From contig CM034128.1 in NCBI GenBank assembly GCA_019914995.1, forward strand, positions 3,970,501-4,034,500: DNA of 64,000 bases, given 5' to 3'. Below the pieces are notes generated by a model. It saw only the letters and a program-made list of their open reading frames with translations, had not been told where the DNA came from and did no database searches. Position 1 is the first letter of the stretch. Each line of letters begins with the position of its first letter. Made by a program: the position numbers and the translations under genes. The DNA comes from Acanthochlamys bracteata. Lineage: Eukaryota > Streptophyta > Magnoliopsida > Pandanales > Velloziaceae. Shown here piece after piece: positions 18,787 to 60,900 of the stretch.

Positions 18787-19035
18787 GGTGTGTTTGGAAT
18801 TGTTTATAAAATAGAGTTTTTTTAAAATAGAAATTTTTTTTTAAAAATAAATTTTATTTTTTTTATTTCTAAAAAAAATTAAAATATGCAATAAAAAAAT
18901 CTCATTATATAAAATTTTTTTACCACTTTCTAAATTTTTAAATAAATTTTTTATATAATTATAAAATATATATTAAAAAATATGAAATAAAAAATTAAAA
19001 AATTTTGTTTAAAAAAAAGTAAAAACAAACACACC
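18787..19035. repeat. AT-rich dispersed repeat, copy 2, with short terminal inverted repeats
   Basis: The left end GGTGTGTTTG (18787-18796) and right end CAAACACACC (19026-19035) are a perfect 10-bp inverted pair around an A/T-only interior carrying the family blocks in reverse order. This is the clearest evidence that the AT-rich family is a MITE-like DNA element. I found no convincing target-site duplication. Confidence 0.55.
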
Positions 19036-19768: not shown

Positions 19769-22700
19769 ATGGCGGAACTGTTATCGGCTTCATCATCGGT
19801 GGCATACTTCGTGCCTTCTTCAGAAACGAAGCGCTCCTCTGCATCTGCAGCGACGCTGATTCATTCCACGCCCAAATCTATCCTCCGGTCATCAACTTCT
19901 TCCGATCGATTTGTTCTTCGCTTCTCACCGAAATCTTCTCGCAAACCAATATCCCATCTACGGCAGGTGAGTAAATTTGCTACCTTGTTAAATCATTGAT
20001 CGGGTTTGCTGGGAGTAGTCAGTGAGAGTTCTCTTAGGAGTGTCTTGTTGATTGTTGGTTTCTAATGGCGTCTGCACGACGGATGATTTATCGGTGGAGC
20101 TGTCTCTTTAAATTTATAACTCAATGATGTGTTTATGTAGAAAATTTGCGTGATTGATATCTGATAATGAGCTTTGGTGCTAACATCTAAACGATGTATC
20201 GATTCCTCAGAAGGTATTGGGGCATCCGGTTCAAATTTTTTGGCAGCGGTGGGTGCCTGGGGAGCTACATGTGCTGCATCTGACTCGGCGCAGTTGAAGA
20301 GTGCAAGAGAGGATATCCGTGAGCTTATTAAGAAGACCTCGTGCAATCCCATTCTGGTACTGCAATCTCAGAATGTGTATTATGAAACTACTTAATAGAG
20401 TTTCACTAGCTTAACTGCTGCAGAATGTATGATGGTTCAACAGAAATATATTAGTTTGACTGTTTACGTCAGTCTTTACAACAATATGGTCCATGGTATT
20501 AAAAACAAGATAATTTACTAATAATGGCAATGAAATGGGGTGATACTGGAATGATTGCTAGATCAGATTCTGTATACGTTTAGAACCAGAAAGACAAAAA
20601 ACAAATGTTATAGGTCGTACGAGAAATTAATAAAACACAGTATATAGTTTCTGCTTCTTAGTTGTTGATTCAATTTTTACAGCTGATGCTGCAGAGAGGA
20701 GCCCCACAAAGAATCTAAAAGTCTAGCTAAAAAAGGTATCTAGGAAAGTTTTGCTTGATGACTGGTCCTGGGTGGGGTTTAAACTTTGGAGAATGCATGG
20801 AGTTCAAATTGAAAGCCCTCAGTGCTGGGCCTTGTGGCTGTATCACCACCTTTTATTGTTTATCTTCATTATCAATAAAGACCAAAGGCTTGCATACGTT
20901 GTTCAATTGCTTGTACTTTGTTGTTTAATCGCTTCCAATATGCTGAAATTCAATCCTCCTACCATTGTTCACTTGCTGTGATATTTAACTGTCCATTGTT
21001 GTTGGATTAACTGATATGTTCAAGTCTCTAAAATTCTGTTTCACTACTATATCACTAAATAATAACTGTTCTGTTTTGTAGGTTCGCCTTGGATGGCATG
21101 ATGCTGGCACATACAACAAGGACATTGCTGAGTGGCCACTTTGAGGAGGAGCAAATGGAAGCCTGCGATTTGAAATAGAGCTTAAACATTCCGCCAATGC
21201 TGGTACTGTGGCCAACAAGTGCAAGAGTAGTTTTAGTCTGCTTTTATAGTTTTTGACGAGCACTGTCTATCATAGGTCTTATAAATGCTATGAAGCTTAT
21301 TCAGCCAATCAAAGACAAGTATCCAAATATTACCTATGCTGACCTGTTCCAACTAGCAAGCGCTACAGCTATTGAGGTATGTCATGATTTTGAGTTTAGA
21401 CAATTTGTTTTTTAAGTGTGTTAAGTTTGAATAGTTATCTTAATCAGCTAGTAATTTCTCGCTTTATTGTCTTGATTAGGAAGCAGGCGGACCCAAAATT
21501 CCCATGAAATACGGAAGGATAGATATTTCTGGTCCTGAGCAGTGTCCAGAGGAAGGTCGACTTCCTGGTGAGCAATTTCACCTCAGCTGAAACATGTTCC
21601 TCAAGTAGCTAAAGCGACTAGCTAATGGATAATATGATATCATAACTATGGTTAGCATTGTTACAGGATTATTGAGTATCATATAATTTGACTGAGCAGA
21701 TTAGGTCGATCATGTTGTATGAATATGTTTTTTGTTCCTTGAGCCTCTTATTATGCTAACCTAAATCTCGAGCTTTTCCATTTTTTTTGCTATTTGCTCA
21801 ATGAAACTAACTTCGAATTTTTTGGCTTTAAGATGCTGGTCCCCCTTCTCCAGCTCAACATTTACGTGATGTCTTCTACAGAATGGGCTTCAGTGACAAG
21901 GTTGCATTCATTTACGTGGTAGTTATGCTCTGTTTCAGATGGATGATCTTAGTATTCATTTAGAACAAATTGTCCTGTAACTGCAGGAAATAGTTGCATT
22001 ATCTGGTGCACACACACTGGGTAGATCTAGACCAGAACGCAGTGGCTGGGGCAAACAAGAAACAAAGTATACAGTATGTATATTGTTCCCCCCTCTTTCT
22101 TTCGTTCTCTCTTTCCTATATAGAGAGAAGAAGTTCTGTCCACCATGGTATTAAGGTATAGTATGTATAATTCCAGTGTTGATTGGTTACTTAACGTGAA
22201 TGGATATGTCAAATCTCTTAGAAAGATGGACCAGGAGCACCTGGAGGACAATCATGGACTATAAAATGGTTGAAGTTTGACAACAGCTATTTTAAGGTGA
22301 AATATTTGATTCTTTTCTAGTATTTGCCATGTAATTGACTAAAGTTTCTAATTGCTGCTGCTCTTGTAGGATATTAAGGAAAGTAAGGATGAAGATCTTT
22401 TAGTTTTGCCTACGGATGCTGTTTTATTTGAGGATCCAACCTTCAAGGTAAGATTAAACAAACTATTGATTACATTATCGCAATAGTCAACATAGTATGT
22501 TTTGATTGAAACTGGTTCACTACTTTTAGGTCTATGCTGAGAAATATGCAGTAGATCAAGATGATTTTTTTAAGGACTATGCTGAAGCTCATGCCAAACT
22601 CAGCAACTTGGGTGCTGAGTTTGATCCTCCAGAGGTAAACTCTATCCGAAACAGCATATCAACTCTATGTTTTTGTCATATGTGCACGGATCCAGTAATC

Positions 22701-23227
22701 GTTAAGCTTTTTCAGTACTGACATACTCTTTTCATATGCAGGGCATCACGATAGATGATGACTCTAAGACACCTGACCATTTTGTAGCAGCTAAACATTC
22801 TTCTTGAAAGGTGGTAATAAATTATCAGCATGTACTTTATTTCCAATATGCTGAAAGATACTGTCCATATTAACCATCATCAATAACCTCTATGTTTAGA
22901 AAATTTATAAACTTTTCTTTTCCTGATGGTATTGAACCATCTTTTCTTCTACTGCTTTGTTTAATGATGAAGCATTTGCAACAGTGTGAAAACAAATAGA
23001 CTGTGTTATCTCTTAGATACAGAAGAACGAAGAAATTTCAGCGAATAAATTCTGTATGTTGTACTTGAATTGCAGAGAGAGCTTTCGGAGACAATGACAC
23101 GGAAGATAAGGGCAGATATGAAGCACTACGAGGCAGTCCAGTCAAGCCTCTTAGATCCAACTATTTCCTAACCATCATGATCTTTGTTACTGGCTTGGCA
23201 ATTTTAGCATCTTTAATTATTCAATGA
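19769..23227 (+). pseudogene. Chloroplast (thylakoid-type) L-ascorbate peroxidase, reading frame broken
   Basis: Relatives reduce H2O2 with ascorbate on the thylakoid membrane or in the stroma. Exons: 19769-19966 or -19970, 20211-20356, 21082-21202, 21276-21376, 21480-21567, 21833-21900, 21987-22073, 22222-22296, 22370-22447, 22530-22634, 22742-22810, 23076-23227. Exon 1 gives a Ser/Arg-rich transit peptide. Exon 2 is only in frame if the donor at 19971 is used. The haem-peroxidase core is well kept: distal RLGWHDAGTYN, proximal [18 protein letters not shown], then KFDNSYFK and [14 protein letters not shown]. The last exon holds PLRSNYFLTIM plus a membrane anchor, as in tAPX. Three lesions: the Arg codon of the conserved WPxRGGANGS reads TGA (21142-21144); TGA replaces a glycine codon just before the tail exon (22805-22807); and the tail exon needs a one-base shift between its KIRAD and YEALRGSP parts. 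The first would end the protein at about codon 137. All splice sites remain, so inactivation seems fairly recent. Sequencing error is an alternative. Confidence 0.82.
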
Positions 23228-24889: not shown

Positions 24890-27800
24890 TCAAGACCTTT
24901 TGAAACCAAGTACAGCAAGAACAAGCGACATAATGTCATTGTTGAGCAACGCCCTTAGAAAACTTTGCTTTCGTAGTGTATAGGGAGGATATCTTGCGGG
25001 AACTTCTCCATAAAAGCTGCGATGTAGAACTCCCTTCATATGACTGAATGCGTCAAATGAGAATTTGCCATGATAGGACCCCATTCCGCTCTCTCCTACC
25101 CCACCAAATGGCAAATGGGAATTTGTGAACTACATAAAGATCCAACAACCATATAGAGTTACAGAGCTTGTATTCAACAGTCAGCTAAGAATCCAAGCAT
25201 AAAACTGATATACTTGTATCAACGACAGACTTACATGAAGAATGGTGTCATTGACTAGAATTCCACCGGCACACACATTATCTACAAACCTCTTCTCCAA
25301 ATTCTTGTTCTTCGTAAAGAGGTATGCTGCAAGAGGTTTTGCTCCCTCATTTATTATATTGAAACTCTCCTCAATATTGTCAACCTACACAATATTGAAT
25401 AACATTAGAATCCTCATATACTAATAATTGGCTTGATAAACACAAGCTTAAGTAGAGGAGCTAAAATTCACTATCAGATTTAGTTTTGCAAGGACTGTAA
25501 ACAAGCGAGACTATCATGTCTTACCAAAACAATTGGCATCAAAGGGCCAAATATCTCTTCTTTCATTACAAGTGAGTTTAGCGGAACATCGAGTAAGAGG
25601 GTTGGAGCTATTTTCCTGCAGTTGGCAGGAAAAACATATGAAATCACTAGCAGTTCTTATCGTTGCTACAAAACAGAATTAAAATCTATATGAGAATGCT
25701 TACAGATGCTTTTCATCCTGCTCACCACCATGTACAATCTTGTCAGAAACTTTCTCTTCCTGTAACATCCTCAACAAGCGTGAGAAATGGTTGGAATTGA
25801 CAATGCGTGAGAGATCTTTAGATTCCAAGGGATCCTTTCCATAGAACTTCTCCAACGTGCTTTTCAGCAGATCGACCTATTGATGAGTCAACTCGATGAG
25901 AGAAATTGAAAAATCATTCCTCGATCTGTACCTTAAGATCAAAGTAGGAGTGTACCAGTTTGGGGGCAAGTGATCGTGTGGTTATAATATAATCTGGTGC
26001 TATGCAGGCCTGACCATTGTTAGATCCCCATTTTCCAACCACAATCCTCTTTACTGCAACCTTGAATTGCAAGAATAAATACAGAATTAGTTCCACAAGA
26101 TGAGAACGTTCACAGTAAAAGAATCTAGGAAATATGAACTTACTTTGATATCGATGTTTGAGTCTACAACTACAGGAGATTTTCCGCCAAGCTCCAGGAT
26201 TACTGGTGTTAGATGCTTTGCAGCTGCGGACATTACAATGCGAGCTACTTTCCCATTGCCTGCAGAACATTCTCATAAACAATTGAGTATAAGTGGGGCA
26301 TATTCTTGCTTTTTAGACTTGGTACATTCTATGTGAAGGGAACAAAAAATCCTCTGATTTTGGTATATATATGCTTTCATGTTATGTTTTCTTTCATTTC
26401 TCTTCTCTGGAACTTAAAATGCTCATTCCATATCAACAACAAAATGAAATGCGAAAAAGCAGAATAATAAGCCACCAAACCCAGCCTCTGACTCAGACCT
26501 TTTTAAGAATCCATGGTACATGAGGTTTATTTCTTAGGGTATATAGGTAGCATTGAAAAGCTAGCTAACTTGTACTAGTATCTTGAGACTCCTGCTCCAG
26601 AATAGTTATTGCAAGTGCCATGGAGAAAAGACTAACCTGTGTAGAGTATTTTGTCCCATTTCTGCTCCAGAAGTGCAGTTGTCTCAGCCACAGATCCCTC
26701 GACAACTTTTATGCAAGAACTATCCACATAAATCGGTAAGATTTTAGCCAAGAGTGATGATGTGGCTGGTGCAACTTCTGATGGCTTCAGCACAACAGCA
26801 TTACCAGCAGCAATAGCTCCAATGACTGGGTCAAGAGATAGCACTGGAAACAGGGGGAAACTAATCCATGAAAATTTGGTAACAATGTCATCATGTAGGA
26901 GATTTGCATTCATAATTGTAGCCAGACATAGAAATCGTATTCTTGTCTTCTTATAGGTCATAGATGCATCTTAAGAAAACCATAACTCAGTATTGAAAGA
27001 AAAAAAAACAGCAGCTACATACACAAAGGATAGTTCCAAGCCGAAATTATTAAAACAACACCCAGGGGCTGGGGCACTATTTCTGCTGATGATGGAAAAG
27101 ATGTAATAGAAGTTGAAACCTACAAAGAATGCAAACAGATTCAATAACTTTTCATTTTCCAAAATATTAATCTTACATGACAAAAAAAAAGCCATAAGTT
27201 TCCGCTACTACAAGAGATCTGTGCAGTACCTTGCTTGGTTTCATCCAACGCTTCAAGTTTTTTAGAGCAAAGCCACAAGAGGACTTGGCAATTGATATCT
27301 GTTATATGAACATTCAGACATGAGCAAAACAATATATACAGTTTGCAGTGAAACAAACACAGTCAAGTGAGAATGTTCCTACGCACTCAAGAGACTAGCC
27401 TCAAGTATTTGTCAATTGTATAGAACACATTCGCTAATGCAGAGACCAATTCAGCGATCAAGCATATAAGCCATGATGACAAGCACAAAGGGAAACTTCA
27501 ACAAATTCCAAGTTTGTTGCCATAAGCAGTCCATGCTATTATTACCGTTTGGCAGTGTGGAGACCTTTTCATCCCAATTTTCTATTTCACATTTCCCAAT
27601 AAATTTTTTACAACATTATATAGAATTTATTTAAAAATATAAAAAAATTGTATGTCATAAAATCTTAATATTGCTTATTGTATTATATTTTTAAAATAAA
27701 AAAATAAACTTGTTTTTTGAAATATCATTAAAATATTTTTCATTTTAGAAAAACAGCACTCTTGCCATCCTAAAGTTGTTACGTGAACGATTTACAACTC

Positions 27801-43515: not shown

Positions 43516-46500
43516 TTACAAGCTATCACCAGATATCCTGTTGGACCATACAATCTCAATCTCAAGCATTCTTTTCGATGCATCTTTGTGGCCATCATGG
43601 CTTAAGCTGAAAATTCCACTATATATTCCCTCTGTTACAACCTTATCTATTTGAATCGTTACCCTGCCCAGAGTGGTCTGCATGAAAATTTAAATGTTTT
43701 GTACGGAATTAAAATATTAATCAACTTCTAGGTAAATGCGATGGAAGGCCTGCGCCTTCATCAAATCTAGAAGTAGAACAAAATAAAGCTACCTTGCCAA
43801 ATGTACTTTTACTTTTGCAGAGGATGTATAACTTCTGTCCTTTAGGAGGGACATCAAATGCCCATGTGAAACCCTCCTTCCATTCTGGACATGTACAATG
43901 GCTGACAACCTGGTGTATTATCATGTCAAGTAGATATAAGAATTAATAAAGAGGACGAAGAAGAAACAATACCTCAAAATCAACCCAACTTTTTAGGGTG
44001 CTCACCTTGGTCTGTCTTGGAGGTCCATTTCCTATTGTCAATGTGCAAAATGCATTGGTAGACCCCATAGTCTGTTTCAAGTTACTCCCACGCTTTATTG
44101 TGACCGTCAAACAGCCTGGGAAGCAATGCAACAGGCTATCTGCTCTTTCATGAAAACTAGGCGGGCAGGTCTTCATCAAAAGTTGCAATATGGGTATGGC
44201 TTCAGCTGCTATCAAGGCTTGTGCTTTGGCAATATCTTGGTTCATATCTGGCCATGATTCTTTCAAAAGGCAAAGAGTATCCAGTACCGATTCCTGAGCT
44301 GCGTCATTTCCTGCTTTAAGAGCACCCACCAAATGTGGGATGCACAGAGTGGCTGCTTCAGACATGCGAAGTTTTTTAAAGTTGCTAAATATCACAAATA
44401 TCGTTCTCAGGACTTCCTCATTTATGGTTGCTGTGGACCATAATTCTTTCTCCAAGGCAGCTGCAGAATTTGTAAATGATAAAGATATGATTTGACCTTA
44501 TCTGATAGGAAATTTTGTTGCATTCATCTACCACATGCTTCTTTTAGTTGAAAAAAGACAGAGTAACCAAAACCAAACATAAAGCCATATTTTAGATATT
44601 TATATCATGTTTCAGCCTTTTATCAAACGAAATAATTTAAGATGGTTTTATAGCATAAATTTTGAGCATTGGATATCATATACAAAAACCTAACTACAGT
44701 GGACAAACCAAACTACAGTAGAAGAATATGTTGTGAGGAGCAAAAGGACCAATCTAGCTAGCAAAATCAGGCAATTTTGAGAAGATATTGGATAATGATC
44801 ATCTTTGTGTACACCAAGATCAAGCTATACAGAAAGTACATTTTGCAAGATTTGACATCAGCTAACTTGTTTTGCATGATCTGGGCCGTGCCTAGCTACA
44901 AAACAAAATAAAATAATAGGCTAGTTTGCAGACTGGCATGTAGATTACGTATGTATATATAAGGGCAGCATCATCATTTGTGCCTATGATAGGCCCAAGT
45001 GTAAAATACCATGGTGCATGAGTGCATCAATGAATGTGGTAAGAAATAACTTACCTGTCAAGGACCTTATTAGCTCATTTGATACATATTCCTGCAGAGT
45101 ATGATTTGAAAATAAATGTTTGATCAGCAAGGCAGCCTGTGCAGCTACTTCTGCATTTGGAGAAAGAAGTAGTTCCTGCACTACCAGAATCCCCCCAGCT
45201 TCTGCAACTGCACGGCGATTTGTTCTACTGTGCATGACCAAGCTTTGCAGTGCACAAATAACAACCATTTTCATCTCTTCAGTTGGTTGATCCTCAAGCA
45301 AGCTTATTAGTGCACGACATGCAGAGACTGCATCGCCTGCTCGAGCAAGATTTTCACGCTGAAAAAGGTCACCAAGAGCAAGAGTTGCCAAAAACCTAGC
45401 AGGTTGGGACCTAGTCTGTGGATCTAAGAGATACTGAGATAAAGGAGCTATTGCAGATTTAGCAACCTTCATTTCCCGTACTCTTGTGTCATTAAAAAGT
45501 GCTTCAAGCAGTCTTCCAGAAGCTTCTTCACATTGATGGGATCTTAAAAGCTCTAATAAAGCATCAATAGCACCAGCTTCTGCCATCCGTACAGCACTTG
45601 AAACATCACTCTTTTCATAAATGAGGAGAACACTGAGAGCTAGAGTTACAGTACTTTCAGATGTTGAGTGTAATAGTCTAACAAGCACTACTGGTGAGAC
45701 TAGAAAATAATATTCAGAGTTAGATCTTAGGACATTGGATAATACAAGGGCTGCTGACTCCCATAATGCATGACTTGGCTGGGGATCATCCTGAACAATG
45801 ATCTTTGAAATTTCAAAGATCCCCCCGGAATCAGCAACAGCCTTAGGCCAGCTGATTGATATACTTTCAAGTGCTTTAATTGCTGTTTGTTGCAAGCTCA
45901 GAATTCCAATTCCTGCAAGCTGAACAAGGGGTACCACAGCATTCTTTGTAGTGATATCCTGTTGGAAGTGTTCTTGCTCTAATAAATGTGACAGTAATTC
46001 AGTACCAAGCTGCTGGATGGCTTGTGAAGGTGACTCCAGAAATGAAATCAAAGGCTCAACCACTTGGCTTGGAGTTAGTTTCAGGGCTGTGAGGCTCTGT
46101 GGCTTCTCCAATATATTCACCAGTGCTTGCAGCGCACTGTGCTGGCCCCACATAGTAAGGTCTGTACGCTGCAAAACCAAGAAAAGTGGCTCAACTATGT
46201 TCACAGCAGCAGAACTTTTAGCTATGCCACTATTATTTGTCAATATACGAAGGAGCTCGACACTTAATGAACAAAGAGGTCCAGGGGCAACATCAAGCAC
46301 CTCAAGTGCATGATCTATAACCCCAGCTCTAACCATGTCCAGCTTGCAATCAGGACGGTCCTTTCCAAGCTTTATAAGGGCACTGATGCTGGCTTCTGAA
46401 AGTTGATGATTAGAAGCAGAAACAAAACCAACTAGAAGGTCTACAACATCATGACTTGCTGCTGTATCTGCAATTTTGTCATCCTCCAGCAACCTCTCAA

Positions 46501-49500
46501 AAGCTCGGAGTCCAGACTCTAGAGCTGTTCCTGAGTCTGAAGACATTAATGATATTAATGGCTGGATGCAATCTGCTGCAGTTGGCACAAGCCGCATATT
46601 TGGATTTCCAAACAACACGAAGCAGAGTTCTGCGGCACTAGTCTTAAGATCAAGTGAGGAGCTATATAACAAAATCTTGTGAAGAGATTGTAGTGGGTCA
46701 CCTTCAACATCAGTCAGCAATGATACCCTGGAAGAACTACCAGAAGTCAATTTTAATAGTGCAAGGAGAGCAGCATGCTGTTCTTTCTCTGATCCTCCAT
46801 CTAGCACGTCCACCAATGGTTGAAGAGCCTGCCTCGCTATTTCAGTATCGCGAATACTCTCTGCATCAAAGAGATGCTGCAAAGTCCTCATAGCACTAAA
46901 CCTGGCATTTCTTGAGCCCAAACGTAGAACAGCAATAAGCTGATTCAAAGTACTATGAGAAGCTTCATAGCGTAGTAGGTCTGGATTACTATACAGAATG
47001 CCCAAGAGATCAGTTATGGTTGTTTCAGTAGTGTCCTGAGGGCTCAATGAAAGATACTTAGTGAGGGCATCTAGAGCACCAGCTTCAGCCATAGATAGTT
47101 TGTTCGCGTTGCTTCCATCAGCCAACTGCTTTAAGAGATAAACCGCAACAGGAGGAGCACCAAGTCTGTCTGGCATTGGTCTAAGAAGATCCACTAGCAA
47201 AGGGATAGACTTGCGTGCGATTGCACCATATCTCACATCTTCAATGTCAAACAAGACTTCAAGAACAACTTGCTCAGGCTTGTGTCCTAAATTAAATTGT
47301 TCAGACAGGGATACAAGGCTTGGCATGTCACTTTCAACATGACCAAGTAAAGTAATTAACCCTCCAACTGCTCCTGAATTTGCGATAGCAAGAAGTATAG
47401 CCCTGTTTTCAGTGCCAACAAGGCTAGACATAGCCTGAGCAGCAAAATACTTGTCTAGCACCTCATCGGATCTTAACAAGAAAGCAAGATAAGGTACTAT
47501 CTGCATAGTTGCTGGACCTAAAGCAACTGCCGCATCCTGAAATAAGGATGCTAATAGAAGTGCGCTGGTCCATATGCCTTCCATGTCTTCAGATTCTGCC
47601 AGCTGATAAAACAAATCAAATCTCTGGTCTTAGAAGAATTGCAAAGAGGAAAAACTTATATGAAGAAGTGAAAAGAAAACATGCAGAGACATATAGCCGA
47701 AAAAATGATCCTACAAGGGGTAAGATACCAAGAACAAGAAGTATCTCCGTGGTACCAAAACTTCATAGCTTTTACGTAAAAGTGCCAATCTCATATACGC
47801 AACTATTTAAATTTAACTTCTTTTTGAATGAACAAGGAATTTGAGATATTTATAAAGTGAGACTTCGAGCTTCCACCTGAATGCTAGTTCCTCATTTAAC
47901 TAGCTGACCTGTAACTACAGAAATATTGCAGAATAACTGAATATTACAATAGTAGGAGCGTCAATTTGATAATACATAGCAACCAGTGGGATATGTCAGG
48001 CAGTTACTAAGTATTTATCTATAACAAGTGGTAGCAGAAGAAGTAGAAAAAGATTAAAGAAAAGAAATTATCTTACATGAGAATTGGCAGCATACCCAGC
48101 GAGCTTACATGAGAGAACCTCAACTCCACCAGCACCCATGATAGTAGCCTTATGCTTCAAATCAGAAGATGAAATTATAGCAAGCAACCATAAAGCAACT
48201 GTTCCACCCAACAACGTAGCAGTGCCAAGAATCTTAGAATCATCTCCTTCATAATGAAAAACATTTCTTTCCAGGATACTTTTTTGTTCTTCAATATCTA
48301 GACAACTAGAGTTTGCATGATGTCTCAGCATATCGACCAACATATATATGACATTCTTTAGAAGTCCAGATGCATCGAGCATGTCCACTACCTGCTCTTT
48401 GTGCTCCTTGGCAGCACAAATTATAAGAGAAGCCCCACCAACTCTTACTTCTTCACTGGAAGCGCTCATGATCCTTTTTGCAAGAGAAGCAACACATTCA
48501 GGTTTTGCTAAGCGATTCCCAAGTAAAGAAGGATGATCACGACACAGCCTAGAGAGAATTTCTATTGCCTTATCTTGCACCAGCAGAGAACCAATGGATA
48601 GACATTTGAGCAATGGATCTAGACTTGATGGAACTTCAGCAAGTGGGGACCATAGGGGATAGCGGAAGTTAAAACGCTGTTTTGTCCTGGCCAACAGAGC
48701 GAGTACTTCCAAAACATCTGATGAATTGATCTCTTCAATATCCATGGCTGCTAAAATCTCAGTAAAACTAAGGACAACAAAACGGCACTCAGACTTCCCT
48801 GTTAGCACGTCACAAGCAGGAAAATGTTTCAGAAGCTGATGAAAGGCACGTGATGCATTTTTCTTACCCTCCAAGCTGCCTTTCTCTAGCACTCTTGTCA
48901 AAGCTGACGCAACATCTTCATCGATAGCTTCTCCAGCAATTTGCTGATCCGATAGCAGATTTGCCAATGTTGTGACAGCAGTTTCAGCAGCATCAATGGA
49001 AGAAGCTTGTGCCATATGAATGAGCGGTTTTACATCACCTCGTGCTATGTAGGGCATCTTATTCATAGCCTTAGCTCTGTTTGGATGGGAAAGTGCACCT
49101 AGCGCCCTAGCTGACTGTGTTGCCACAACTTGTGTTTTGCTGGTCAGCAGCTTCATGCATGGGTTGACAATTTCATCCAATGCAAGATTGTCACAGATAT
49201 CTTGTCGAACACTGAATAGATCAGCTAGAACAGAAGCAGCACACTCTTGGGATTCTTCATCTGATGAGTTCAAAATTTTAACAAGGGATCTGAGTCCTTT
49301 GTTAGCAGGAGAACCCTTTTGCACCAAGTCATATTGCGAAGCCATGCTAAGCACATGACCCAATACTGTGATGGCATGATATTTTGACCCAGTAGAATCA
49401 TTGAGGAGGAAAGCTAGCAACTGATTGATGGTAGCAGAATCGGCCAAGCGTATTAGCTTTTTAAGTGCCTTTGAAGATGCTTCTTGTCCCTTCATTCCAC

Positions 49501-51400
49501 CACTCCTTAAAAGCCATAGGAGTGCAGGTATTGCACCTGCACTCTCAACACATGCACGGATATCATCACTGTGACAACACAAGTTCCAGAGTACATAAGC
49601 AGCATCTTCCTTAGCTCTCTGGGAACCTGTCTCTAACAGTTGAACTAATGAGGGGATACCACCAGCCACTGTGATCGCCCACTTGCTATCATTAACTTGA
49701 TCAGTTAAGACTGCAAGTAGGGCAACTGCGTACTCCTGATGTTGCTCCCCTGAAAGCCCAAGCAATGAGATGAGCAGCTGGATTCCTTCTCTCTTGCCAA
49801 TAGCGTCCCATATGTCAACCCCATCACAGCAAAGGTTTGTCAAGGATATTATAAGCTGTTGTTGCACATCAACGGAAGCCATGGTTATAAGACCAATGAT
49901 CACCCGCTTGGCTTCTGCATGATCAATCTTACTGGAGAGACAGGAATTACCATACAAGGTTGCTAGGCCCTCAAGAACACGATCTTGTACCAATTTATTA
50001 TCCCGTGGTTTCAACAGCATAATCAGGATATCTTCAATCTGAGTTGCATCTAGCTCGTCTTCTTTTTCATTGAAAAGCATCAATGCATATGCAAGTGTTC
50101 CAATAATATCAGCAACTGGAGCTGATAAATGATGGGATTTTGATAGCTCTCCAAGATAAAGTATTAGGGAAGACATACTACCACAGATGTTGGCTAAAGC
50201 TAGAAATGCATGACTTTGCAAAGCATGGCCAGACTCCCCTTGCATGCATTCCTTAGAAGGAGCTACCACAGCTCCAATCAGAAGGGTTATGCCTCCTGCA
50301 TCGACCACAGCTTTCTTCGCTTCGGTTGATTTGGATGAAAGGGCCTCCAGAGCATCAGCAGCGCTAGCACGAACAGATGTATCATTATGCTTGCCTAGTA
50401 GATCAAGGAGAGCTTTAACAGCTCCAGAACCGATGATTTTAGGGATGCTATCTTCAAAAGCCAGAATTAAACGCGCCAAGAGAGACGCAGCATTTGACTG
50501 TGCTGAGGGGTTGTCAGAAGAAAGGAGGCCAGTAATAATCTCCACACCTCCAGCCTCCAGTGTGGCCTTCCAATATCCATCCTTCTCACCACAAAGGTTT
50601 CTTAAGGCCCCAGTCACAAAGCCCTCCACCACTCTATCTTGTTTCATACTAGGATTGAGCTGTTCCCACAGTGTTGGCACAACGCCTTCTGTGACAAATA
50701 TCTTCATGCCTATATGGTCGTCGGAAAGGCCGCCAGCAGACACTTCAAAAATGGCCTCAGCTGCAGCTTTCCTTGCTTCAAAAGTCTGGGACTTGAGAAT
50801 TGAGAGCAACGGAGGAACACATCCTCCAAGAAGGACTTTTACACGCAAATCTTCCTCCCTACAAAGAGTACTAAGAGTTGCAGCTACATTCACTTTAGAA
50901 GTTAGGGTTCCATTCCTAAGTATAGAGATGAACAGTGGCATAGCCTGAGAGTGAGAGCCGATCATAGTCCTCGCATCCTTCCGTGCTCTGGCAATTGAAA
51001 GCAATCTTGCAGTTGTTAGCTCTCTCTCAGCTTGCGAAGACATCTTCGCATGAAGCTGCTCCAGCAATTGGGCCACAGTGGCCAAGGTGGCTTCAGGGTC
51101 ATCCATAACGGCTGAATCATTTGATTCCCTGGCAATCAGAAAAATAATAACAAACTATGCGAACAATAAAGCATGGCAAAATTTTGCAAATTGGTCATAA
51201 TTTCCCATTCTGACTTTACTTGGCAAAATGTCAGAGGGATTGTGCAAGTGATTTCTTATTGCTCAGAGGCCAGCAAAACAGCCTGCAAAATAAATTGGGA
51301 GTTGCAAAAATTTTGAGGGGAAACAATACCTTGATGTAGAAGATGGCGAGGATGTCGGACGAGATGATGCATCTCTTTGCTCAGGTGAGGATTTCAACAT
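43516..51400 (-). CDS. CSI3: CELLULOSE SYNTHASE INTERACTIVE 3-like armadillo-repeat/C2 protein
   Basis: Giant cytosolic scaffold that tethers cellulose synthase complexes to cortical microtubules. Six in-phase exons: 51400-51330, 51128-48077, 47602-45055, 44460-44006, 43909-43793, 43677-43516, coding 2134 residues; Arabidopsis CSI3 is about 2136. The N terminus is a short Ser/Pro-rich stretch (MLKSSPEQRDASSRPTS). Armadillo/HEAT-type helices fill about residues 40-1990: e.g. KVLLGGCVPPLLSILKS, AGGIPSLVQLLETGS, CVESAGAIPALLWLL, LLVDLLRPMPDRLGAPP, LSQYLLDPQTRSQPARF. A C2 domain closes the protein (about 2005-2125): CLTVTIKRGSN, GPPRQTK, WAFDVPPKGQKLYI. Two very large exons of 3.05 and 2.55 kb hold most of the coding sequence. 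Wording such as AKMSS, SILRNGTLTSKVNVA and DDHIGMKIFVTEGVVP is closer to CSI3 than CSI1. The chosen ATG is on a short first exon that keeps phase; a later Met lies at 51106. No break is seen. Confidence 0.95.
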
Positions 51401-54173: not shown

Positions 54174-54448
54174 ATGTGAAGGCGACGCTGGACTTGGGCT
54201 TCAATTATGTGAACTTGTAAACTTATCATGAAAAGTGAAAATAAATACTGACGCATCAATTACTAACTAATTAATTATACTAATTTAATGGTTACCGTTA
54301 TTTCGATGCATCTAGTCCTTTAAATGCAAAAAACTGAATGGGTTTCATTCACAATAAGGGATCTCCAGGTGGTCTTCTGCAGATAGTTGTTCAGCTTTTA
54401 AATGTCATAACAATTTAACACGAAGATAGCTGGTATTTGAAAGAATTA

Positions 54449-56717
54449 ATGAGACCAGCTACTCTCTTTCATCCAACTTCTTTCCAGCTCCATCTCCCAA
54501 CTTCTTCTTTCCCGCATCTCGCCGTCAACGGCAGGGGCGCTATGTCCAAAAAGCGGAAAAGAATAAGCTCATGTTCACCGACTTTTAACAATCCTCCTCA
54601 ACCACAAACTTCCAAATCCATCCGCGGCGGTAACCTTACCACTCGGCGTCGCCTTACCTTCTCCTCCTCACCAACTACATCTACCGGCGTTTGGTTTCCG
54701 TTAGGTGTCTCGGGAACAGAACTCTGTCTCTATCTAACTCTCCCGACGGGCCAAACCTTCCGATGGCGCAAAACCGGCCCAACACAGTTCACCGGCGTTG
54801 TGGGCCCGTACCTTGTCTCTTTAGCTCAAAAGGGCCCACTTGATCCGGTAATGTTTCAGGTCCATGTCGCCCCGGATGGTGTCACGTCAGCAGCTGGTGC
54901 TCGGGCCGTGCTGGAGGATTACTTTAACTTGTCGATACGATTGCAGGGGATGTGGGCCAAATTTGCTAACTCAGACCGGCGGTTTGCTGAGCTGGCAACT
55001 CTGTTTGGTGGCGGTGCACGGGTTCTTCGTCAGGACCCGGTTGAGTGTGTGTTCCAGTTCTTGTGTTCTTCCAACAACAACATTGCGCGGATTGAAAAAA
55101 TGGTAAATGTTTGTCCTTTATTGTTTGTTTGATTTGTTATTCATTTATTGAAGTGTTGTTTTGGTTGGCTTCTGGTGTTTGTTTGGGCTTTATAGATTAA
55201 TTGATCCCCGTAAACTGTGCCTTTCTTTTTAGTTAGTAAGTTAACTTGATAACTAACTCTTAATTTCATTGATCTAGATTGTCATTGGTTATGCTTGTAT
55301 CTTGCTTTCAAGTAATGGACTTGACTTTAGCTATCTCAATATTCAAAAGTTGAAAAACATTACTGAAGTACTTCTCAGAGATAGGGACACTTGTTGATGA
55401 TGTAAGTGCTATATAGGTGGGCGTGATATCTGCTTACGGGGAGTATTTGGGGACCATTGGAGGGTTTGATTTTCACCAATTTCCGAGCCTTGAGAGATTG
55501 AAACGTGTTACTGAGCAGGAGCTTAGAGATGCTGGATTTGGCTACAGGTTTGTTTTCAAACTCATTGATGATTAAGGGAAGAATGTGGTAATTAGCAATG
55601 TACTTAGATGATCCACACTTTCTTGCTAAAAAGTAAAAAGTAATGTAGAGTCAAATCCATCAGAGCATGACTATATATACTATCCCTCCCCATATATATA
55701 TAACCAAGATGAAACTATGTTGTAGACTTGACATGGTGTGGATAGAAGTAGATTGCCAAATGACATGACAGTCTGGACCTGTCCAATTTTCAGGCTCATC
55801 TGATCATGTTACGATGCAGAACTCAGAAGCTGCTTTAATTAAGAAGCTCCTAGCTAGCTCTAGCTTGTCATTCCTGAGAAGGCAAAAGAAGCTTATTTTC
55901 TTTTACTTTTTGCAATATATAAATCATCAGTAATCACATTGAATCTTTTTTCAGCGAATACATTATAGCTAGGCTTGTTGGCAACCAATAAGTTGACGTT
56001 TTTGTTCTCATAGAATGTAGAAGCTGCTGTAGCTTACACAGCAGAATGCAATAAAACATAATAAGTAATTAACAGACAAACCATCCAAGCCCTAGTTTCA
56101 TCTTGGTGAAAAAATATAGTTATGCTCTGATGGATTCAACTATCTTGTAAACCTGACATGGTGTGGACAGAAGTAGGCTGATACTGTGTTTTGATATCCA
56201 CTAACAAGCAGAGCCAAGTACATTGTCGGTTCAGTTAAAGCTTTGCTAGCAAAGCCAGGTGGAGGTGCCAAGTGGCTTGGTTCCATCCGGCACTTGGAGC
56301 TTCATGAGGTAACTGAAGCTCTTTGTGCTTTACCTGGAGTTGGACCAAAGGTTGCAGCCTGCATTGCTCTCTTCTCCTTGGACCAACACCATGCAGTTCC
56401 TGTTGACACTCATGTGTGGAAGGTGGGCTACAGACAAACAGTTGGTATAGAACACCAACTTTTATGATACAGACAATTGGAACTAATATGTGATTCTCGT
56501 TTACAATGCCCTGTAGATAGCAACCAAATATCTCTTACCGGAGCTAGCAGGTCTAAAGCTATCACCTAAGCATTCCACTCTTGTTACTGAGGCATTCTTA
56601 GCCAGATTCGGGGCATATGCTGGTTGGGCACAAAATGTATTCTTCATAGGTGAATTGCATTCTCACAAGACATTTGGCGAATTCTTGAAAGAGGAGACAA
56701 CCTCCAAAGACACCTAA
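54449..56717 (+). CDS. OGG1: 8-oxoguanine DNA glycosylase/AP lyase
   Basis: Base-excision repair enzyme that removes 8-oxoguanine opposite cytosine. Four in-phase exons, 54449-55102, 55417-55547, 56212-56422 and 56517-56717, code for 398 residues. The N-terminal 90 or so are basic and Ser/Pro-rich and include a likely nuclear signal (SKKRKRI). The OGG N-terminal domain follows (FPTGQTFRW-like LPTGQTFRWRKTGP), then RVLRQDPVECVFQFLCSSNNNIARI. The helix-hairpin-helix/GPD motif is ALCALPGVGPKVAACIAL with catalytic Lys308, and Asp327 lies in VPVDTHV. The last exon (ATKYLLPELAGLKLSPK.. FGAYAGWAQ) runs straight to TAA. It is convergent with SWI3C, the same pairing as in Arabidopsis. Intron 2 holds an inverted repeat (see below). 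Confidence 0.95.
55652..56137. repeat. Inverted repeat within OGG1 intron 2
   Basis: AATCCATCAGAGCATGACTA (from 55654) and AACCAAGATGAAACTA (from 55702) recur in reverse complement at 56094-56137, giving arms of about 45-65 bases around a 375-base centre. Directly right of each arm a similar 28-base stretch containing GACATGGTGTGGA is found in the same orientation (55724-55751 and 56149-56176). It is probably a foldback-type insertion or a rearranged duplication. Confidence 0.6.
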
Positions 56718-57908: not shown

Positions 57909-60900
57909 CTAACCTATATTTGTATTATTCCCAGTGGAGTGTCTCAACAATAGATGATTGGGATTAGGTGTGTTTGCCACACTAGAATTGAACATTACAT
58001 TTGGAGAAGGTGCAGATGGAGAAGGGTGTAAAGCAGATAGAGGCAAGCGAGGCCCAAAAGAAAGCATCTGTTGTTGTTGCCTTTGTGCAAGTGGCATCTG
58101 AGCATGACCAGCCAAATTGTTTCCATAAACATGTTGCACATTTGGCTGAGTGACTGATGTTGACATGGTAGGCAGTCTAGGGTTTGAATTCATAACAGTA
58201 GCAGCACTGGCTGCCTGTGCTGTTGTACCCGATGTGGTATTTAGGGTTGCTCCGACTGGACTGTATCTGCCAGTCATCATACGAACCCTATCTGCTGACA
58301 GTCTTTGTCTCGCCTTCTCAACTTGCTCGCATTCCCTCATCAGTAAGGTCTCTATCTCTGCAAACTGCTTCAATTTCAGCTCCAACCTCTTCAGCTGCAG
58401 CAGTCAACCATAAACGAAAATGGTTGAGTTCACGCATTAAGTACGTTAGACAACAACCTACGAGAAATAAAAGTCTGTGTTATCAGATATTCATGTTGCA
58501 ATGACTTATGAGCCATGCTTTATAATTGGACAGCTATAAGCTGTGTCGGATCCAATTCACCCCCTTACGCAAGGATGGTGCAGAATTTCAGGGAGCATAT
58601 ATAACTGCACAGCATAAATGAGAATATTTTTTAAGTCTTATTTGATTTGTTAGCTCGTGTTCTGTAAAGGTTACATTATGCTTAGACTGTGGAAGGGTGT
58701 ATTCAATAATGAAACCAATCTTGAAGCATTATTACAAACTGTGAGCAGCTTGCTTTAGGTACAAAAGAAAGACTGTAATGAGATCCAAAGAGGAACCATT
58801 AACGAATCATCAATCTCCAGGTTAGTAAACAAGAAGAACCATTTCTCATTACAATCAGCCTGAATATGCATAGTTCCAAATGATTGGAGCTACTGGGCTG
58901 AGTGAATGCCAAAAAGATGGGATACTTCTAAATTCCTTTAAGTTACCTTTTATGCTTCCATGTTCATAGAATCACCTAAATTTTTTGCATTCATTCTTAG
59001 ACATAGTGCATGAGTCATCCAAACAAACTTATATACAATGTTTTGGTCACCTAGTAGTCCCATGCGTAGTCTGTACGATCTCAAGTATAGGGGTAAAATG
59101 TTTTGTCTCTTCAACAATTTCATGATGCTGTTGGTGTATACATTCACAAAATTTATAAACAAAAGCAACAAACCTGATTGTTTATGATTGTTGCAGCAAG
59201 TCTCTGGATTTCACGCTCCTCCTGATCTGCAAATAATTTTGCTTTCATTGCCGCAGCAGATAGACCGCACTTAGCAGCATGCCTGATCAACTCAGGATCC
59301 AATGGAGAGCTTGCATCTTTTCTATCTTCTAATGCATCAGCTGAGATAAATAGTTAAAGAAAACATTCAAAACTTCTGAAAAGAGAGAGCAACACTCTCC
59401 AAAACTAGGAAGAATAGGGGAAAAAAGGACCTGTGACCATACCTTTTTGATTGCTTGATTTTGGATATGATCCATATGAACCAGCTGATACATGCGCATT
59501 ATCAAAACTTGACCTTCAAATATTCAAGACATACAGATACTGTTAAATTAAATCAAACAAGCAGAAGAACACATGCATCCTAACAATCAATGATGATATC
59601 ACATGATAACACTAAGTGGCATTGTTTTCTATTAAGAGACAGTCTATCATTTCTTCATCTTAATGTGTTTCAGTGCTAAATATGTGCCAAGTCTCAGGAG
59701 AGGAAGAGAGACTAGCCTGGCAATCTAAATGAGACAAAAATATAAACATGATGTTGTACAAACTTTTCAAAGTGGCCACATTTAACCATGCCAAAGTCTT
59801 GGAAGCAGTCATTGACGAACTTAAGTCAATTCTAGTAAAAACTCTATAATTTGGTTGTTATGAAGTATGTCAATGACATCACTAGCCAAACTCCAAGAAA
59901 ACAACAAACATTATTTCCAGCATCGAAGAGGTCAAACTCAGCTAACCTTGAATCTCCTTTAGTCAGTACTTGCAATGAAGCACTCGCACAAGCAGCAGCA
60001 ACTCTTGGACCAATAGCTGATCCCAAATAGGCAACCTGCAAAAGAGAGGAGTTGAATTGGTGACAGCTTGTAATTTCTTACGAATTCTTGACCACTTCAA
60101 GAAAATAAATAAGTTGAAGACTGCATACACCCCAATACTCCAGATTTCACACCCAATTGGTTAGTACATAGACACGATTGGAAAGAACGGTTTGCTATCA
60201 TACTTGGAGAGTTGCTTATGCACTCATTTATGAGTTTACAATACTGAGCAAGGCCCCACACCAAAATATCCAGTGACTAAAAGACCAATAAGAAGCAATA
60301 TGATAATCACTTCTGTAAACTACACCAATAGAAACAAGAAATAGCTGTGTGCACCATAAATCAGCGATACAGATACTGATAGACTCACCAGAGACATAAG
60401 TGGATTTGCTGAATTGGTAAATGGGAGCTCGTTCTCAGAATGTGAGTGTTCAAGAAGAGATCCTGCAAATATAACAAATGAAAACCACAGAAGAATAGAA
60501 TTTCTTGTACTAAAGTTGTTTGCAAGGAACACAAAAAAAAACCTCAGTGATGTGTAATGAAATAAAGTATTGTACCTTTACCATTACCGATGGAATTTGA
60601 GCCTGACGCATACAAGTGTCCATTTGGAATTCCAGATGAAATGCCTGGAGGAATCTCAATATTTTCAAAAAACCCATTCTCCATTGGAAGTCGTACAAAA
60701 TGGAGTATACATTGCGCCTTTGATTTGGTCCCCACATGTTCAGCAATTTCATTCCAATTATCATTATATCTCTCGACGCCCTCCAAGAGAAGTAAGGTTT
60801 CCTGGTCAGTCCAATTATCTCCGTCTACTTCTGTTGTGTCTTTCTTGGAGTTAACTTTGAAAAAATCTATACTGGAATGTCCAATGATAAATCGGGCATT

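What the first reader, a model, noticed from the sequence alone, without database searches (positions are those of the whole stretch)
19769..23227. Thylakoid-type ascorbate peroxidase gene is whole in structure but broken in frame
All twelve exons, their splice sites and the active-site motifs survive. Yet TGA stands for the Arg of WPxRGGANGS, a second TGA precedes the thylakoid-tail exon, and the tail exon needs a one-base shift. The kept exon structure points to recent loss of a usually important plastid antioxidant enzyme, at its ancestral locus. Other outcomes are possible: the second TGA could be the end of a stromal isoform made by alternative splicing (known for single-gene species), but the first TGA would stop both forms. 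Frames and stops are seen directly; loss of function is inferred.
Basis: partly seen in the sequence, partly recalled or inferred. Interest (0 to 1): 0.75.

Follow-up and report, generated by a model that had tools for sequence, protein, structure and literature searches.

The report
Dying duplicate of chloroplast ascorbate peroxidase
The window holds a recently broken spare copy of a plant's chloroplast ascorbate peroxidase gene, while a fully open sister copy sits at the matching place on another chromosome, so the plant has very probably not lost the enzyme.

Summary
A 12-exon chloroplast ascorbate peroxidase (APX) gene lies at 19769-23227 with every GT-AG splice site kept, TGA codons at 21142-21144 and 22805-22807, and a lost base in the tail exon. 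'Loss of the enzyme' fails: the same genome holds a completely open 429-aa sister gene at C5:7181041-7177455 (-), in a collinear duplicated block of similar synonymous age (APX body dS 0.53; neighbouring pairs 0.44 to 0.51 pooled). So this is one of two copies from a block (probably whole-genome) duplication. It stayed under strong purifying selection (body dN/dS 0.065; replacements 7 here, 7 in the sister) and broke late, by one rough model within the last 5.5% of its separate history. The sister keeps both ends of a dual stromal/thylakoid splice gene, including the terminal Asp of tobacco stromal APX. Ordinary duplicate-gene death; the odd point is how fresh it looks for a gene with four disabling changes.

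The parts
19769..19966 (+). exon 1 (transit peptide), ATG start; donor CAG|GTGAGT with a tandem GT 4 nt downstream (19971)
20211..20356 (+). exon 2; 146 nt against 147 in the C5 sister: one base lost, gap placed near 20228-20229 (exact place uncertain)
20295..20297 (+). TGA reached in the ATG frame (codon 95) if spliced as in the sister
21082..21202 (+). exon 3 (distal motif RLGWHDAG)
21142..21144 (+). premature TGA where the sister and tobacco 1IYN have Arg in WPxRGGANGS
21276..21376 (+). exon 4
21480..21567 (+). exon 5
21833..21900 (+). exon 6
21987..22073 (+). exon 7 (proximal-His motif ALSGAHTLG)
22222..22296 (+). exon 8
22370..22447 (+). exon 9
22530..22634 (+). exon 10
22742..22810 (+). 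exon 11; lacks two codons found in the sister (near 22769)
22805..22807 (+). second premature TGA (Gly codon in the sister), 3 residues short of the tobacco stromal APX end
22927..22928 (.). junction of a 16-nt deletion in intron 11, over the place where the sister has a putative stromal acceptor plus Asp-stop
22935..23034 (+). conserved intron-11 stretch: 32-35 of 40 identical per sliding window (the 11 whole introns have 57-75% identity); probable splice-regulatory or stromal 3'UTR sequence (inferred)
23076..23227 (+). exon 12 (thylakoid anchor); one base lost between 23116 and 23117

Best explanation
It is an inactivated duplicate (pseudogenised ohnolog) of a dual-isoform chloroplast APX gene. 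A block, probably whole-genome, duplication made two loci, here called by contig: C3 (the window) and C5. Both were kept under strong purifying selection for most of their history. C3 then lost function through frame losses in exons 2 and 12, nonsense changes in exons 3 and 11, and loss of the place of the stromal alternative end. C5 stays open and has the anatomy to make both the thylakoid form (tail exon) and the stromal form (alternative Asp-stop end). Shown here: lesions, intact sister, collinearity, similar dS, low dN/dS. Inferred: whole-genome rather than segmental duplication, lack of a C3 product, expression and splicing of C5, the order of the lesions.
For: Intact sister, 12 exons, 1290 nt, 429 aa, no stop, Pfam peroxidase 4e-46, 568 bits to 1IYN. 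The window matches C5 as an inverted collinear series of blastn blocks from 11.6 kb to the window's end. APX body dS 0.533 (whole mature part 0.467); neighbour pairs dS 0.513 over the 940 codons of 6 stretches without a stop in C5, 0.438 over all 10 stretches, 1766 codons. APX body dN/dS 0.065; polarised by tobacco 1IYN: 7 C3-derived, 7 C5-derived, 3 ambiguous replacements, giving a neutral fraction of the C3 branch of at most 0.055 in a simple model. No third copy or second haplotype found in the searched assembly.
Against: No reads, transcripts or other individuals were available, so assembly error or a segregating null allele is not excluded. Four disabling changes with no excess of replacements in the body is somewhat more than expected: at the upper bound 0.73 nonsense changes expected, P(2 or more) 0.17, at half that fraction about 0.06. 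The exon-2 frame loss could be offset by a tandem donor 4 nt downstream, though the upstream donor is a perfect consensus (recalled rule). The polarity test rests on one outgroup protein. The collinear series has long gaps without matches (about 23-32, 42-48 and 48-58 kb).
Confidence: 0.87

Rival explanations
1. Some or all lesions are assembly errors, or this haplotype carries a null allele of a gene that is intact in other individuals; the constrained body then reflects a gene still working in the species.
For: No excess replacement in the C3 body (7:7) despite four lesions; both frame losses are single missing bases, the exon-2 one near a run of six T.
Against: Neighbouring coding exons show few breaks: of 10 stretches compared with C5, 8 align in one frame throughout and 2 change frame only near the end of the stretch, where I take the open frame to run into an intron (not tested); ORFs of 1028 and 881 aa are open. 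Two lesions are substitutions, one in a CG context typical of true mutation (recalled). The 16-nt and 6-nt gaps are not typical read errors (recalled). No second haplotype contig was found.
Confidence: 0.08
2. Two-step history (a version of the best explanation, not exclusive of it): the copy first lost one isoform, as in published partitioning of stromal and thylakoid forms between duplicates, worked for a time as a one-isoform gene, and then died.
For: Tail exon dN/dS 0.33 against 0.065 for the body, Fisher p 0.013 on rounded N:S counts; second TGA lies 3 residues short of the tobacco stromal end; intron-11 deletion covers the stromal end. Rubber tree HbAPX4 is a published one-isoform case.
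Against: Tails may evolve faster in working genes too, and exon 1, the transit peptide, has a similar ratio, 0.31; no outgroup for the tail could be obtained (one search found no paper). The intron stretch before the tail exon stayed well conserved. The lesions hit both ends, so which went first is undecided.
Confidence: 0.2
3. The locus still makes a useful product: splicing at the tandem donor offsets the exon-2 frame loss and TGA readthrough or a short product of about 136 aa has a function.
For: The tandem donor GTGAGTAAAT exists in this copy and not in the sister, and would offset the exon-2 loss; body constraint was high.
Against: The exon-3 TGA would still end the protein before the proximal His; a second TGA and a frame loss lie behind it; the first donor is a perfect consensus (recalled rule).
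Confidence: 0.03
4. One reading: recent loss of the plastid APX function from the plant at its only, ancestral locus.
For: The copy in the window is broken.
Against: An intact sister exists on C5.
Confidence: 0.02

Closest known systems
Chloroplast APX genes with alternative splicing to stromal and thylakoid forms (pumpkin, spinach, tobacco, castor bean)
   Same: Exon plan, tail exon, and in the sister an alternative acceptor reading Asp-stop (PMC9855080 section 3.4 read; PMC3095285 and PMC9266299, passages only)
   Different: The window copy has four disabling changes and lacks the stromal end
Rubber tree HbAPX4, a duplicate predicted to encode only the stromal form (PMC9855080, section 3.4 read)
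   Same: Duplicate of a dual-isoform gene that lost sequence at the 3' splice-choice region
   Different: HbAPX4 lost the element for the thylakoid form and is predicted to encode a protein; the window copy lost the stromal end and is broken in four places
Pseudogenised ohnologs after whole-genome duplication (general, recalled)
   Same: One copy open, one disabled, collinear neighbours, some neighbours lost from the other block
   Different: Nothing in kind; fresh-looking for its number of lesions

Membership tests
Chloroplast (stromal/thylakoid) ascorbate peroxidase | Best match to a chloroplastic APX rather than cytosolic APX | tested here: met
   1IYN 549 bits against 212 for the best cytosolic chain
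Chloroplast (stromal/thylakoid) ascorbate peroxidase | Open reading frame through the peroxidase domain | tested here: not met
   Window copy: stops and frame losses. Sister copy on C5: met
Chloroplast (stromal/thylakoid) ascorbate peroxidase | 12 coding exons with a last exon for the membrane anchor | tested here: met
   exon plan from passages of PMC3095285 and PMC9747090; PMC9855080 counts 13 because it counts the stromal exon
Dual-isoform (alternatively spliced) chloroplast APX | Short stromal exon reading Asp-stop between exon 11 and the tail exon | tested here: not met
   Sister has TTTGCAG|GAT TAA; the window copy has a 16-nt deletion there. Splicing itself not tested
Pseudogenised duplicate (ohnolog) | Collinear block with an intact copy of the same age | tested here: met
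Pseudogenised duplicate (ohnolog) | Duplication was of the whole genome | not tested
   Only one block was compared
Pseudogenised duplicate (ohnolog) | Absence of a functional product | not testable with these tools
   No transcripts, reads or proteins on hand

The most novel reading that the evidence does not exclude
The copy was a working one-isoform or dual-isoform plastid APX until almost now and intact alleles still segregate: its catalytic body shows no trace of relaxed selection after a duplication at dS about 0.5, so the species may be caught in the act of losing one of two long-kept plastid APX genes, possibly after isoforms were partitioned between the copies.
Probability: 0.15. Interest if true: 0.45.

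Novelty: new member of a known kind. Interest (0 to 1): 0.22.

Why it matters
It corrects a claim of enzyme loss: the genome keeps an intact plastid APX gene. It gives a small example of late duplicate death, in which both copies of a redox gene were held under selection for most of their history and one then failed. The pair would be a natural case for asking whether partitioning of splice isoforms precedes the death of a duplicate. An annotation that called the window copy a functional tAPX would be wrong if the lesions are confirmed.

Tried and rejected
Looked for a third plastid APX copy or a second haplotype by protein and DNA: beside C3 and C5, only weaker APX or peroxidase hits, and two DNA queries returned C3 and C5 alone. 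Looked for tail-exon sequences of other plants in paper text to polarise the tail: 0 papers. Searched for papers on APX pseudogenes with whole-genome duplication: 2 papers held all five terms, both off topic by title and start of abstract; a broader search listed 20 of 64 papers, none of them by title about a lost plastid APX of a seed plant. A New Phytologist paper on partitioning of splice forms (Qiu 2020) and one on a tobacco splice factor are cited by PMC9855080 but not held; I have not read them. Tested alternative splice choices around intron 1 for a stop-free frame: 28 donor-acceptor pairs keep one to the end of exon 2; the only one with the usual acceptor (20211) is the tandem donor at 19971, and it does not remove the exon-3 TGA. 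A first exon table with wrong end points (window side) was replaced. The pooled control dS first used only 6 of 10 pairs; all 10 were pooled later. The species was not identified; no relatives of this genome are held. Rejected: reading the second TGA as a natural stromal stop, since the sister has a sense codon there.

Full report
What is there. The window is contig C3:3970501-4034500 of an unnamed 195.5 Mb genome in 557 contigs; that it is a plant is my inference from the genes. At 19769-23227 lies a 12-exon gene whose translated exons match tobacco chloroplastic (stromal) APX 1IYN at 549 bits; the best cytosolic chain scores 212. All 11 introns begin GT and end AG. The TGA codons at 21142-21144 and 22805-22807 and the one-base loss in the last exon are in the sequence as reported.

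Exon 2 is 146 nt; the sister's is 147 nt. If spliced as in the sister, the frame from the ATG is lost in exon 2 and ends at TGA 20295-20297, codon 95. A tandem donor 4 nt downstream (GTGAGTAAAT; the sister has GTGAGC) would offset this loss with the usual acceptor. The first donor is a perfect consensus by the usual rule (recalled), so I take that as a minor possibility, and the exon-3 TGA would remain. Intron 11 lacks 16 nt after 22927, and exon 11 lacks two codons.

The sister gene. A search of the whole genome with the window protein scored 61 of 61 candidates. A full set of similar exons appears at one other place, C5:7177458-7180484 on the minus strand. Elsewhere there are only parts: exon-3-like hits at 42-45% identity on C10, C8 and C11, 72-80% hits over 29-30 residues of the proximal-His region on C3 (9.03 Mb), C5 (2.44 Mb) and C1, and weak peroxidase hits; I did not classify these loci. 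Two DNA searches with parts of the gene return only C3 (100%) and C5 (83 and 85%). The C5 gene spans 7181041-7177455, has the same 12 exons, 1290 nt, and reads as one 429-aa protein without a stop; Pfam gives peroxidase PF00141, 4e-46, residues 97-327. A transit peptide and a hydrophobic tail are my reading of its ends. In its intron 11 stands TTTGCAG|GAT TAA, which would give a protein ending SSGKD; tobacco 1IYN ends STGKD and aligns to that last residue. A published account of castor bean and other Euphorbiaceae describes such a short exon for Asp plus stop before the tail exon as the source of the stromal form (PMC9855080, section 3.4, read). So C5 probably makes both forms; splicing was not tested.

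Origin of the pair. blastn of the window against 110 kb of C5 shows an inverted collinear series of blocks from window 11.6 kb to its end, with repeats off the line (near 18.8, 27.6 and 36 kb) and long stretches without matches (about 23-32, 42-48 and 48-58 kb). Of 14 window ORFs tried as controls, 10 gave pairs; CSI1_a gave only a poor remnant (43% identity, 3 stops) and CSI1_b, OGG1 and ALDH gave no hit. The 6 pairs without a stop in C5 pool to dS 0.513 and dN/dS 0.184 over 940 codons; all 10 pool to dS 0.438 and dN/dS 0.225 over 1766 codons; single stretches range from dS 0.25 to 0.78. The APX body (exons 2 to 10, 265 codons) has dS 0.533, dN 0.035, dN/dS 0.065; the whole mature part (336 codons) has dS 0.467 and dN/dS 0.106. 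The APX pair is thus about as old as its block. The APX-like hits at C3:9.03 Mb (-) and C5:2.44 Mb (+) would also fit inverted homoeologous contigs, but that is one more pair and a similar hit lies on C1. Whole-genome duplication is the likely cause but was not tested genome-wide.

When it broke. Against tobacco 1IYN as outgroup, the body has 7 replacements on the C3 side, 7 on the C5 side and 3 that cannot be placed, besides the nonsense codon. A simple profile likelihood puts the neutral fraction of the C3 branch at 0 with an upper bound of 0.055; it assumes equal branch halves and dS as the neutral rate. At that bound 0.73 nonsense changes are expected and two or more have P 0.17; at 0.03, P 0.06. 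So the death was late and the number of lesions is on the high side but not impossible. The tail exon has dN/dS 0.33 (Fisher p 0.013 against the body) and exon 1, the transit peptide, 0.31. A working tail may be less constrained anyway, so an earlier loss of the thylakoid form is only suggested. Against it, intron 11 between 22935 and 23034 keeps 32 to 35 of 40 identical positions per window, where the 11 whole introns have 57-75%; nearer the tail exon the windows fall to 26 and 28 of 40.

Assembly error. Of the ten neighbouring coding stretches compared with C5, 8 align in a single frame and 2 (methyltransferase PMT_ex1, aspartic-protease-like ASP) change frame near the end of the stretch. 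I take those two as open frames running on into an intron, since they lie beyond the Pfam matches, but did not test it. In-frame stops on the C5 side lie at the edge of the stretch in three and inside in one, SWI3_d. ORFs of 1028 and 881 aa are open in the window. These stretches were picked as long open frames in the window, which favours unbroken ones there. Four breaks in 1.29 kb of APX coding sequence still stand out, but reads are needed to close the point.

Literature seen. PMC9855080: passages and section 3.4. PMC3095285, PMC9266299, PMC9747090, PMC5397514: passages only. PMC3095285 and PMC9266299 say that tobacco, spinach and pumpkin (the second: pumpkin and spinach) make both forms from one gene and that Arabidopsis (the second also rice and tomato) uses separate genes. 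PMC9747090 reports Ka/Ks under 0.1 for APX duplicates of grasses, in line with the 0.065 found here.

Verdict. The copy is broken, the enzyme is very probably not lost. It is an ordinary pseudogenised duplicate, of some interest for its late death and for the dual-isoform gene it came from.

Noticed in passing
window 44984-51154 (-) and C5:7151944-7152255: A long armadillo-repeat gene (Pfam Arm for 48068-51154; it looks like CELLULOSE SYNTHASE INTERACTIVE 1, name recalled) is open here, while the C5 stretch searched keeps only a remnant with 3 stops at 43% identity: the reverse loss to that of APX.
   Followed up: partly
window 54419-55132 (+) and 26632-26970 (-): Exons of an 8-oxoguanine glycosylase (OGG_N) and an aldehyde dehydrogenase have no match in the 110 kb of C5 searched.
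   Followed up: no
C5:7145499-7145990: The C5 partner of window 57909-58403 (-), which I take as part of the SWIRM/SWI3-like gene next to it, shows an in-frame stop inside the aligned stretch (SWI3_d); could be a second broken duplicate, this time on C5, or an intron edge.
   Followed up: no
C5 sister, exons 3 and 7 (C5:7179580-7179460 and 7178690-7178604): The intact sister has HDSG and GRARP where tobacco and the broken copy have HDAG and GRSRP: two changes near active-site motifs in the copy that must carry the function.
   Followed up: no
window 18792-19029 and 27575-27753: AT-rich repeats with several matches off the collinear line in C5, probably short transposable elements (inferred).
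   Followed up: no
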